From NCBI RefSeq assembly GCF_003688725.1, contig NZ_REFP01000008.1:124001-188000 (forward strand): a stretch of 64,000 bases of DNA. The letters are read 5' to 3'. Both the position numbers and the translations under genes were made by a program. Below, one piece after another: positions 18,215-20,589 of this stretch. How positions within the stretch are numbered: the first letter of the stretch is position 1; the number at the start of each line of letters is the position of its first letter. The notes under the pieces were generated by a model. It ran no database searches. It was given only the letters and a program-made list of their open reading frames with translations, and was not told the origin of the DNA. This DNA is from Thermoactinomyces vulgaris (GTDB lineage Bacteria > Bacillota > Bacilli > Thermoactinomycetales > Thermoactinomycetaceae).

Positions 18215-18808
18215 TTAAACCACGTGGTTCATGAGCCATTCTTTGGCTTTATCGCCTTCAAGCATTATTGGATTTTCAGGTGTACCGATATTAATGCTTT
18301 TTATATATGCATTATCAATACCTCTGATGTCTGTTAATTTTGCCCCTTTAATCAAAACATCTTCAAAAACGGAGACACTTACATCCACATGTTTCAAAGT
18401 AGCCTCACGAAAGTCAGCCTCCACAAAAAGACTGTTCACTAACTTGGCATGTGTCAGGTCTGTTTTGTAAAAGATGGTTTCAAAGCACTCACATTTAACA
18501 AACCTTGCATTTTTGGCATTAGCATGAGAGAAATTCACATAAGATAAATTTGCTTTCGTAAAATCAGCATGGGCCAAATTGGTATATTGAAATGTGGAGG
18601 AACACAGATGTGATGCAAACCAATCTTTACTTTTTAAGTTCATTCCATCAAATACACAATCTGTTAAAAAAGATTGATCCAAGGGATATTCCATTAAATT
18701 CATTTCACGAAAATCGATTGCGTCCAATTTTAATTTTTCGCCTTTTTTGCCAATCGTTTTAATCCATATTTTATGGGCTTCCAGACAATTCAATATTTTT
18801 TCTTGCAT
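18215..18808 (-). CDS. Pentapeptide-repeat protein, probable immunity protein
   Basis: 197 residues with a run of A(D/N)LXX/F-type pentapeptide repeats from about residue 70 to 165 (FTKANLSYVNFSHANAKNAR, then KTDLTHAKLVNSLF, then ADFREATLKHVDV). These form a right-handed quadrilateral beta-helix. No transmembrane segment. The gene starts 15 bases after the secreted toxin, with AAAGAGG as RBS, and is last in the cassette, the usual place for an immunity gene. The immunity role is inferred from position; a few toxin loci are known to use this fold. Confidence 0.75.
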   Translation of the reverse strand: MQEKILNCLEAHKIWIKTIGKKGEKLKLDAIDFREMNLMEYPLDQSFLTDCVFDGMNLKSKDWFASHLCSSTFQYTNLAHADFTKANLSYVNFSHANAKNARFVKCECFETIFYKTDLTHAKLVNSLFVEADFREATLKHVDVSVSVFEDVLIKGAKLTDIRGIDNAYIKSINIGTPENPIMLEGDKAKEWLMNHVV

Positions 18809-18823
18809 TTTGAAAACCTCTTT

Positions 18824-19960
18824 CTATGGATACCATATGATTCGGTCCTCAACCCCATTCTTTTTAATTGCATCTTCTAACTCTTTGACATGTTGAGGAA
18901 TTAAATCTCTTTTATCAATAATTACATTATGACCTCTGCGAAACTCCGCATTAATCTTTTTCATTGCTTTTTCAACAGTAAAAGCGCCCTTTCTTGGAGA
19001 AGTGTGACCATTTGGATAGGAAACAAAACTTTTTATGTCCCATTTTATACCTGTGGTGGTATCAATAAATTCTGCGCCCCCGTCAGACTGTGGATCACGA
19101 ATGATTTTTCCCAGCTTTCCTTGACTTTCAAGCGCTAAACCTATTTCTCTTTCTTTAATCCCCTGTTCTGTAATTTGTCCGCCATGAGAAGGGTCTCTTG
19201 CTAAATCGTCATATTCCTCTTGGGTTCTTTTGACAGGATGATTTTTCTGATTTTTTCCACCCCCGTTTGTGCCTTCAATCCGATTCACCTCAGGTCTCCG
19301 GGGAATGTCCGGGGGTCCGCCGGCAGGCTGCAGTTTGGGACCGAATCCGAATCGTTCAGCCAGATCATCAATATAGACACCAAATTTCTTTAATAATTTC
19401 TTTCCGCCATTAAATATTCCTTTCAGGATCACCCCTGCTTTTTTGCCGGGGCCGGAAGCAATGCCGATGGCTGAGATCACTTTATCGACCGGGCTCAGTT
19501 TGTCCCCGGAGATGGAATCTTTTCCGGTAAAGAGGTCCTTCAAATTTTTGATGTTGGAGATGACCGGAATACAGTCGACAACGCTGCTTAACGCCCGGTC
19601 TGCCTCTTTTTTCCTTTCGCCTTGCAATGGATCGCCTGTGTATAGATCATATCCCAACAAACTTTCGACTGATTTTTTGAAGAAGCCGTCCAAAAATTCG
19701 TCATTTGCCTGCTTGCTTAATTTCTCCAAGTCTTTTTTATCCTTGGCGGCACCGATCCAGATAAGAAAATCGCCCAGCCAGGTGTTTTCGTCTTTTTTCT
19801 GTTGCGCACCTTGATTCGGTTTGACTTTGGTAAAGTCCTCATTCACTTCGGGAACCTCAAAACCTCCCGATGGATCGGCATAGCATGTTCCCGCCGACAT
19901 GAAAAGAACAGCGAAACAAACAACAAGCCTGAACAAGGTCATGCAGAATCTTTTGATCAT
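18824..19960 (-). CDS. Secreted polymorphic toxin: signal peptide, PT-TG pre-toxin region, CdiA_C-like tRNase domain
   Basis: 378 residues from ATG at 19960 (AGGGTG upstream; GTG 19969 is alternative). Residues 1-31 form a Sec signal peptide ending CYA before DPSGG. Around residues 110-180 two TG motifs (DLYTGDPLQGE and DLFTGKDSISGDKLSP) mark a pre-toxin TG region. A Pro/Gly linker (PAGGPPDIPRRPEV) leads to a C-terminal domain with EREIGLALESQGKLGKIIRD, FIDTTTGIKWDIKSF and NVIIDKRDLIPQHVKEL, ending RIIWYP. This resembles CdiA C-terminal tRNase domains of PD-(D/E)xK-like type, with Asp and Lys of WDIK as candidate catalytic residues. Toxicity is inferred. Confidence 0.75.
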   Translation of the reverse strand: MIKRFCMTLFRLVVCFAVLFMSAGTCYADPSGGFEVPEVNEDFTKVKPNQGAQQKKDENTWLGDFLIWIGAAKDKKDLEKLSKQANDEFLDGFFKKSVESLLGYDLYTGDPLQGERKKEADRALSSVVDCIPVISNIKNLKDLFTGKDSISGDKLSPVDKVISAIGIASGPGKKAGVILKGIFNGGKKLLKKFGVYIDDLAERFGFGPKLQPAGGPPDIPRRPEVNRIEGTNGGGKNQKNHPVKRTQEEYDDLARDPSHGGQITEQGIKEREIGLALESQGKLGKIIRDPQSDGGAEFIDTTTGIKWDIKSFVSYPNGHTSPRKGAFTVEKAMKKINAEFRRGHNVIIDKRDLIPQHVKELEDAIKKNGVEDRIIWYP

Positions 19961-19974
19961 GATGATCACCCTGT

Positions 19975-20589
19975 TTAAAAAATCATAAGAATTATGGCAA
20001 TCAAAAGGTTAACCAATACAACCAACAGCAGGGAAATGAGCATGGCGAAAAATCCCCTGAGTTTGGAAAAAGAGTGGATTTCTCCCAATGCAACGGCCAT
20101 AAAGACGGCCCACCAAATTAAGATGGCCAGATCAAGCAGATGGAGGAAAATAAATAAGATTGATAAAAATGTACTGTTTTCCACGGTGGGTTGAACGGTT
20201 TGAAAAATTTCGTTTCCCAGGATCAGGATTTCCAAAAATCGGATGATCAGCGAAGCGGCAAAAAAGATCCCTGACCATGCGACGACGGGTTTGATTTCTT
20301 TGGTTGATCCTGTGCCTCCCAACCATTGTCCGGTAATGGAAAACAAATAGGTGGAAATCCAGACAAACAGGTAACCGGTCACCGGACTAAAGATGATTGC
20401 AATCAGCAAGATGGCGGACAAGCTCAAGGTATCCCCTGTGGAGTTGAAATAAGAATTGTCCAGATTCATGGAAAGGCCGGTCAGCAATATCAGCATAACG
20501 GGTATTTTCTTGTTGTTTAAAATCCGCTGGACCGTGTCCCCGGGGTTTAACCATATGGACAACCATGGAATGTTGAATTTGTTTTTCAA
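19975..20589 (-). CDS. Yip1-like multispan membrane protein of the toxin cassette
   Basis: 204 residues with five hydrophobic segments (about 30-45, 60-85, 105-130, 145-165, 175-200) and the arrangement of Yip1-domain proteins. TTG at 20589 is chosen because GGGAGG lies 9 bases upstream; the in-frame TTG at 20598 abuts the RBS. The toxin follows after 14 bases, so the two are almost certainly co-transcribed. It may help export or anchor the toxin, or protect the membrane; no function is shown by the sequence. Confidence 0.7.
   Translation of the reverse strand: MKNKFNIPWLSIWLNPGDTVQRILNNKKIPVMLILLTGLSMNLDNSYFNSTGDTLSLSAILLIAIIFSPVTGYLFVWISTYLFSITGQWLGGTGSTKEIKPVVAWSGIFFAASLIIRFLEILILGNEIFQTVQPTVENSTFLSILFIFLHLLDLAILIWWAVFMAVALGEIHSFSKLRGFFAMLISLLLVVLVNLLIAIILMIF

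What the first reader, a model, noticed from the sequence alone, without database searches (positions are those of the whole stretch)
18215..20589. Three-gene secreted toxin cassette: Yip1-like membrane protein, PT-TG toxin, pentapeptide-repeat protein
Seen: three minus-strand genes with 14- and 15-base gaps and AT-richer DNA than neighbours. The middle one has a Sec signal peptide, two TG motifs and a C-terminal domain resembling CdiA_C tRNase toxins; the last is a pentapeptide-repeat protein in the immunity position. Known: PT-TG regions precede toxin domains in polymorphic toxins. Inference: a small secreted toxin-immunity system with a dedicated membrane protein. Use of a pentapeptide beta-helix as cognate immunity and of a Yip1-like partner would be unusual.
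Basis: partly seen in the sequence, partly recalled or inferred. Interest (0 to 1): 0.75.

Follow-up and report, generated by a model that had tools for sequence, protein, structure and literature searches.

The report
Secreted nuclease toxin with pentapeptide-repeat immunity
The three genes are a mosaic bacterial weapon locus: a secreted, probably DNA- or RNA-cutting toxin whose tip is always encoded right next to a square-helix-shaped "pentapeptide" protein that most likely protects the producer, plus a membrane protein that accompanies this kind of toxin body in related bacteria; I found no earlier description of an immunity protein of that shape.

Summary

Module 1: toxin C-terminus (residues 248-381) plus pentapeptide gene. 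The C-terminus matches no Pfam, NCBIfam or PHROG family; AlphaFold (pLDDT 92) gives a PD-(D/E)xK-type core with invariant E, D and DxK. Relatives in Paenibacillus, Brevibacillus, Bacillus and Clostridium sit on unrelated carriers (LXG, WXG100, phage baseplate hub, MuF, PT-TG). In all 23 named loci with a recognisable domain, and on one plasmid, the next gene is the pentapeptide protein, and the two diverge together (r = 0.92). This is textbook toxin/immunity behaviour, with an immunity fold I did not find described.

Module 2: Yip1 plus the PT-TG toxin body. In 42 genomes of the order, 18 of 43 PT-TG hits lie within 3 kb of a Yip1 gene (about 0.2 expected). In a related genus the same Yip1 and toxin N-terminus carry an Ntox47 tip and another last gene, so Yip1 serves the body, not the tip. 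Most such relatives have Flp/Tad-prepilin leaders.

CdiA_C membership is not supported. Nuclease activity and neutralisation are untested.

The parts
19975..20589 (-). Yip1-family multi-pass membrane protein gene (TTG start), first gene of the apparent operon
   Evidence: Pfam Yip1 4e-13; paired with PT-TG genes in 11 of 21 genomes that have PT-TG over the cut-off
18824..19960 (-). Secreted polymorphic toxin gene, 378 aa from ATG (381 aa from the in-frame GTG at 19969)
19877..19960 (-). Signal peptide (read by eye), cleavage likely after TCYA
   Evidence: sequence; same arrangement in 16 other hits in this genome and three related ones
19832..19867 (-). GG-F-[ED]-VP-x-[IV]-N-E-D-F motif directly after the signal peptide, shared N-terminal module of a toxin family
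   Evidence: 17 hits in 15 searched sequences (one gene counted twice across a contig break), 0 in 569 kb of control sequence
19400..19597 (-). PT-TG (pre-toxin TG) domain
   Evidence: Pfam PF14449 2.8e-11; G000:C2:143400-143597
19229..19336 (-). Junction linker KLQPAGGPPDIPRRPEVNRIEGTNGGG...: homology to sister toxins ends here, C-terminal homology begins
   Evidence: G+C change
18827..19228 (-). C-terminal toxin domain (residues 248-381), new PD-(D/E)xK-like family; invariant E273, E281, D303, D311, K313 (381-aa numbering)
   Evidence: alignments A1, A2; AlphaFold model pLDDT 92.3
18215..18808 (-). Pentapeptide-repeat protein, 197 aa, predicted cognate immunity protein

Best explanation
This is a polymorphic-toxin locus. 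The middle gene makes a Sec-exported protein: signal peptide, a short GGFEVPEVNEDF module, a PT-TG region and a C-terminal toxin of the PD-(D/E)xK nuclease type. After release or processing, the C-terminus enters a competing, probably related, bacterium and cuts nucleic acid (DNA or RNA not decided). The pentapeptide-repeat protein has no signal peptide, stays in the producer's cytoplasm and most likely binds and blocks this particular C-terminus. The Yip1-like membrane protein belongs with the toxin body: it probably helps export, membrane passage or maturation, and does not confer immunity. SHOWN: gene content; a mosaic junction at residues 238-248; C-terminus and pentapeptide gene always together, on unrelated carriers; swap of C-terminus plus last gene under a conserved Yip1 and N-terminus; Yip1-PT-TG adjacency across genera. 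INFERRED: nuclease activity, the target, direct binding, and the role of Yip1.
For: C-terminus and pentapeptide gene adjacent in all 23 named loci with a recognisable domain (24 copies) and on a P. polymyxa plasmid, gaps mostly -13 to +15 bases; also in the genomes, some of which are the same strains. Remnants keep the pair: G019 has only the last 31 residues of the domain, next to a degenerate pentapeptide gene 57% identical. Carriers are unrelated: LXG, WXG100, baseplate hub GPD, MuF, PT-TG. Distances of the two partners correlate, r=0.92, 0 of 20000 permutations. Direct swap: G009 has Yip1 (60% identity) and a toxin whose homology stops exactly at GTNGGG, then Ntox47 and another last gene. 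Fold and invariant E, D, DxK; top fold matches enriched in PD-(D/E)xK nucleases. Several orphan pentapeptide genes sit in rows of other small immunity-like genes. Yip1 next to PT-TG in 18 of 43 hits, about 0.2 expected.
Against: No fold match is significant (E>0.05 in PDB), so the nuclease class rests on topology and motif. Of 26 pentapeptide relatives in the class survey, 12 have no such domain beside them, and four in one genus (L168-L170, L172) stand in an ordinary chromosomal neighbourhood. Linked genes share history, so correlated divergence alone does not prove contact. No biochemical evidence. The signal peptide was judged by eye.
Confidence: 0.82

Rival explanations
1. The pentapeptide protein protects the target, not by binding the toxin: like MfpA, Qnr, AlbG or McbG it mimics DNA on gyrase, and the toxin acts on a gyrase-DNA complex.
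For: Same fold; the closest solved structures are AlbG and MfpA. Mostly acidic relatives (pI 4.4-5.0, window copy 6.2).
Against: Matches to Qnr/MfpA models are far below cut-off. It diverges in step with the toxin domain, whereas protectors of a conserved target need not. The toxin has a nuclease-type core.
Confidence: 0.1
2. Yip1 is itself an immunity or resistance factor at the membrane, guarding against import of the toxin.
For: It is a membrane protein in the same apparent operon; membrane-acting immunity proteins exist in other systems (general knowledge).
Against: Yip1 stays while C-terminus and last gene are swapped and is absent from the other loci with this C-terminus that were examined. 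It precedes the toxin gene, whereas the variable immunity gene follows it.
Confidence: 0.12
3. The pentapeptide protein is a chaperone or loading adaptor, like the pentapeptide-DUF2169 proteins of type VI systems, not an immunity protein.
For: Pentapeptide proteins are found as accessory proteins near VgrG spikes (PMC11883445, PMC3942780). Baseplate-type carriers here have a second pentapeptide gene at the other end of their locus.
Against: The gene follows the C-terminus on Sec, LXG, WXG100, MuF and baseplate carriers alike, so it cannot be specific to a secretion route; several orphan copies occur in rows of immunity-like genes.
Confidence: 0.08
4. The C-terminus is not a nuclease (for example an ADP-ribosyltransferase or a binding domain).
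For: Weak, sub-threshold Pfam hits to ADPrib_exo_Tox and no significant structural match.
Against: Topology and the invariant E...D...DxK set fit PD-(D/E)xK; fold matches are enriched in restriction, Hjc and mismatch endonucleases.
Confidence: 0.12

Closest known systems
Polymorphic toxin systems (Zhang et al. 2012, PMC3482391), Sec-exported class
   Same: N-terminal export module, pre-toxin domain, variable C-terminal toxin, downstream immunity gene, C-terminus/immunity swapping, orphan cassettes
   Different: A pentapeptide-repeat immunity protein and a Yip1 partner are absent from the held text of that survey (0 mentions each)
Tox-REase families 1-10 (PMC3482391) and CdiA_C (PF18451)
   Same: PD-(D/E)xK-type core with E, D and (D/E)xK
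   Different: No detectable sequence relationship at curated thresholds; DxK in a WDVKSF strand instead of the ExK common in those families; different immunity partner
Qnr / MfpA / AlbG / HetL pentapeptide-repeat proteins
   Same: Right-handed quadrilateral beta-helix; some (McbG, AlbG) give self-protection against an antibacterial
   Different: Qnr, MfpA, AlbG and McbG protect DNA gyrase; this family is encoded directly behind one toxin domain and co-diverges with it
LXG and WXG100 toxins of Bacillota (type VII)
   Same: The same C-terminus+pentapeptide pair occurs on LXG and WXG100 proteins
   Different: The window toxin has a Sec signal peptide and the GGFxVPxINEDF module instead
Tad-like Kil apparatus of Myxococcus (PMC8460266)
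   Same: Links Tad machinery with contact killing
   Different: No toxin-bearing pilins are reported there; here relatives of the window toxin body have Flp-prepilin leaders

Membership tests
Polymorphic toxin system | Same C-terminal toxin domain on different N-terminal trafficking modules | tested here: met
   LXG, WXG100, Phage_GPD, MuF and PT-TG carriers
Polymorphic toxin system | Same N-terminus with swapped C-termini and immunity genes | tested here: met
   G009 Ntox47 variant, G018 variants
Polymorphic toxin system | Cognate immunity gene directly downstream | tested here: met
   23 of 23 named loci with a recognisable domain, plus one plasmid, by position; neutralisation not testable
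Polymorphic toxin system | Toxicity and specific neutralisation | not testable with these tools
   needs bench work
PT-TG proteins (PF14449) | Match over the curated cut-off | tested here: met
   43.7 bits against 23.5
CdiA_C (PF18451) toxins | Sequence match over the curated cut-off | tested here: not met
   only 1 of 11 members, at E=0.083
PD-(D/E)xK (restriction endonuclease-like) superfamily | alpha-beta-beta-beta-alpha-beta core with E, D, (D/E)xK | tested here: met
   model pLDDT 92.3; invariant residues
PD-(D/E)xK (restriction endonuclease-like) superfamily | Significant structural match to a solved member | tested here: inconclusive
   best MunI E=0.058, TM 0.32; BFVD endonuclease-like E=0.005
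Pentapeptide-repeat proteins (PF00805) | Repeat match and quadrilateral beta-helix | tested here: met
   E=6e-16; model pLDDT 97.5 matches AlbG, MfpA
Qnr / MfpA gyrase protectors | Match over the equivalog cut-off | tested here: not met
   MfpA 40 of 360 bits, Qnr 29 of 240 bits
Yip1 family (PF04893) | Match over the curated cut-off | tested here: met
   50 against 28.6 bits

The most novel reading that the evidence does not exclude
The Yip1+PT-TG part comes from a Tad-pilus toxin route: in related genomes PT-TG toxins are made as Flp-type prepilins (DUF4244-like leader) together with Yip1, often a dedicated S26 signal peptidase, and in some loci Tad genes, so polymorphic toxins may be assembled into or exported by Tad pili. 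In the window's genome, which has no detectable TadE, the prepilin leader has been replaced by a Sec leader while Yip1 and PT-TG were kept. Together with a pentapeptide beta-helix as toxin-specific immunity this would be a new delivery route and a new immunity fold.
Probability: 0.4. Interest if true: 0.82.

Novelty: new variant of a known kind. Interest (0 to 1): 0.64.

Why it matters
It adds a new toxin domain family and, if confirmed, a new kind of immunity protein: a pentapeptide beta-helix that would recognise one nuclease specifically. Pentapeptide proteins are known mainly as gyrase protectors, and most have no known role, so a defined partner makes the function of one subfamily directly testable. 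Because the pair rides on at least five carrier types in Bacillota, it is also a clean marker for horizontal exchange of toxin tips. The Yip1-PT-TG link gives a lead to a role for these bacterial Yip1 proteins and points to Tad pili as a possible toxin route.

Tried and rejected
CdiA_C tRNase membership (sub-threshold only). Sequence matches to solved structures for the toxin: none meaningful. NCBIfam, PHROGs and PADLOC for the toxin: nothing over a cut-off. Phage records: no match. A three-gene unit conserved as such: not found beyond the window. Yip1 as part of the C-terminus module: rejected, absent from the Paenibacillus, Brevibacillus and Bacillus loci examined. Promoter/terminator scan: no more hits than in shuffles. 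Organism: unnamed; class Bacilli is inferred because genome G164, listed as same class, has a contig of the same length (101557 bases) as a named Brevibacillus borstelensis contig. Literature: no paper found in the held library describes a pentapeptide protein as cognate immunity of a polymorphic toxin, a Yip1 partner, or pilin-fused toxins in Tad loci; absence from that library is not proof.

Full report
OBSERVATION. The three minus-strand genes exist at 18215-20589 with 14- and 15-base gaps. Pfam confirms Yip1, PT-TG and Pentapeptide, all over their cut-offs. The toxin begins with what reads as a Sec signal peptide. The AT-rich stretch is not the whole trio: G+C at third positions is 0.57 (Yip1), 0.53 (toxin N-part), 0.28 (toxin C-terminus) and 0.32 (pentapeptide gene). 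The change falls inside the toxin gene, which suggested that the C-terminus and last gene arrived together.

JUNCTION. Against the G009 relative, homology ends exactly at residue 238 (...NRIEGTNGGG). Against a Bacillus changyiensis LXG toxin, homology starts at residue 248 and runs at 75% identity to the end. G018 keeps the same linker and then diverges, and a second, orphan copy of that linker there leads into yet another C-terminus. This is the classical boundary between toxin body and toxin tip.

C-TERMINUS AND PENTAPEPTIDE GENE. A survey of 400 genomes of the class found the C-terminal domain or remnants in 14. A scan of named genomes gave 25 loci from Paenibacillus, Brevibacillus, Bacillus, Lysinibacillus, Priestia, Fictibacillus and Clostridium; some of these are the same strains as. 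In all 23 named loci with a recognisable domain (24 copies), and on a P. polymyxa plasmid, the next gene is the pentapeptide protein, most with an overlap of 13 bases or a gap of up to 15. The two partners diverge in step: r=0.92 over 18 pairs, 0 of 20000 permutations as high. The bodies differ: LXG, WXG100, phage baseplate hub, MuF-like, PT-TG and unassigned. Remnants show the same pairing: G019 keeps 31 residues of the domain beside a decayed pentapeptide gene behind a lipase-type toxin array. The reverse search found 26 pentapeptide relatives in 21 of 400 genomes; 14 have the domain or its remnant beside them. Of the 12 others, several stand in rows of small immunity-like genes, but four in one genus have an ordinary chromosomal neighbourhood.

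STRUCTURE. The 136-residue C-terminal model (21 sequences) has pLDDT 92.3 and the order alpha, beta-beta-beta, alpha, beta. Invariant E273, E281, D303, D311 and K313 (381-aa numbering; alignment positions 28, 36, 58, 66, 68) sit on the long helix that opens the core and on the core strands. Foldseek gives no significant hit, but MunI, Hjc, PA endonucleases, mismatch and restriction endonucleases recur. I conclude a divergent PD-(D/E)xK-type family, probably a nuclease; substrate open. No Pfam, NCBIfam or PHROG family covers it. CdiA_C appears once at E=0.083, which is not membership. The pentapeptide model (pLDDT 97.5) is a regular quadrilateral helix with terminal helices, nearest to AlbG and MfpA, but it is far below the Qnr/MfpA family cut-offs.

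YIP1. In 42 genomes of the order, 43 PT-TG hits over the cut-off were compared with Yip1 hits: 18 have a Yip1 gene within 3 kb on the same strand, in 11 genomes, against roughly 0.2 expected for random placement. G009 has the same Yip1 (60%) and toxin N-terminus but an Ntox47 tip and another last gene. So Yip1 goes with the toxin body; I infer a role in export or maturation. Looking at the other Yip1-linked toxins, nearly all have an Flp-type prepilin leader ([KR]G-x-x-x-EY plus a hydrophobic stretch), matched by DUF4244 in four of five tested (two of these matches just under its cut-off). Neighbours include S26 signal peptidases, TadE-like genes and, in L141 and L144, Tad genes; in L144 Pfam confirms a type IV leader peptidase, RcpC/CpaB (sub-threshold), an AAA ATPase and a T2SSE ATPase. 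The two genomes with Sec-type leaders and Yip1 (window, G009) have no TadE hit. Tad-borne toxins would be new as far as the held literature shows, but this is a lead, not a result.

N-TERMINAL MODULE. The signal peptide is followed by GGFEVPEVNEDF. The same arrangement occurs in 16 further hits in this genome and three related ones (one gene counted twice across a contig break), and not in 569 kb of control sequence. Their tips include lipase-like (sub-threshold), ADP-ribosyltransferase, amidase, transglycosylase and EndoU domains. The window toxin is therefore one of a sizeable arsenal in this genome.

MECHANISM AND LIMITS. Most likely the toxin is exported, its tip reaches the cytoplasm of a competitor and cuts nucleic acid, while the pentapeptide protein blocks the tip in the producer. 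Shown here: anatomy, modularity, pairing, predicted folds. Inferred: activity, substrate, binding, role of Yip1. Rivals are listed with their tests. Compared with known systems (PMC3482391) this is a member of the polymorphic-toxin kind with a new toxin family and an immunity fold I did not find described.

Noticed in passing
L040, L139-L150 (related genomes): PT-TG toxins with Flp/Tad-type prepilin leaders (DUF4244-like), encoded with Yip1, often an S26 signal peptidase and, in L141 and L144, Tad pilus genes: possible polymorphic toxins of Tad pili.
   Followed up: partly
window 19832-19960; L011, L012-L014, L016, L035-L039, L041, L042: A shared N-terminal module, Sec signal plus GGxFxVPxINEDF, heads many toxins with different C-termini in this genome and three relatives; no Pfam family.
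   Followed up: partly
L011 162-11321: Tandem array of about eight related lipoproteins beside lipase-type toxins, probably surface immunity proteins against a lipase.
   Followed up: no
L076 787-1893, L093 668-1774, L045 1007-2173, L071 9772-10917: Contractile-injection-type loci carry a second, longer pentapeptide protein (368-388 aa) at the other end, distinct from the immunity-type one.
   Followed up: no
L168, L169, L170, L172: Four genomes of one genus keep a stand-alone pentapeptide relative between ordinary genes with no toxin nearby.
   Followed up: no
L090 5110-6420 (Clostridium yunnanense): The same toxin tip is fused to a phage MuF-like protein, next to phage-like genes.
   Followed up: no
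L069 5606-6253 and 7772-9534: A complete toxin/pentapeptide pair followed by an orphan pentapeptide gene with a 33-residue remnant of its former toxin tip: a trace of tip replacement.
   Followed up: partly
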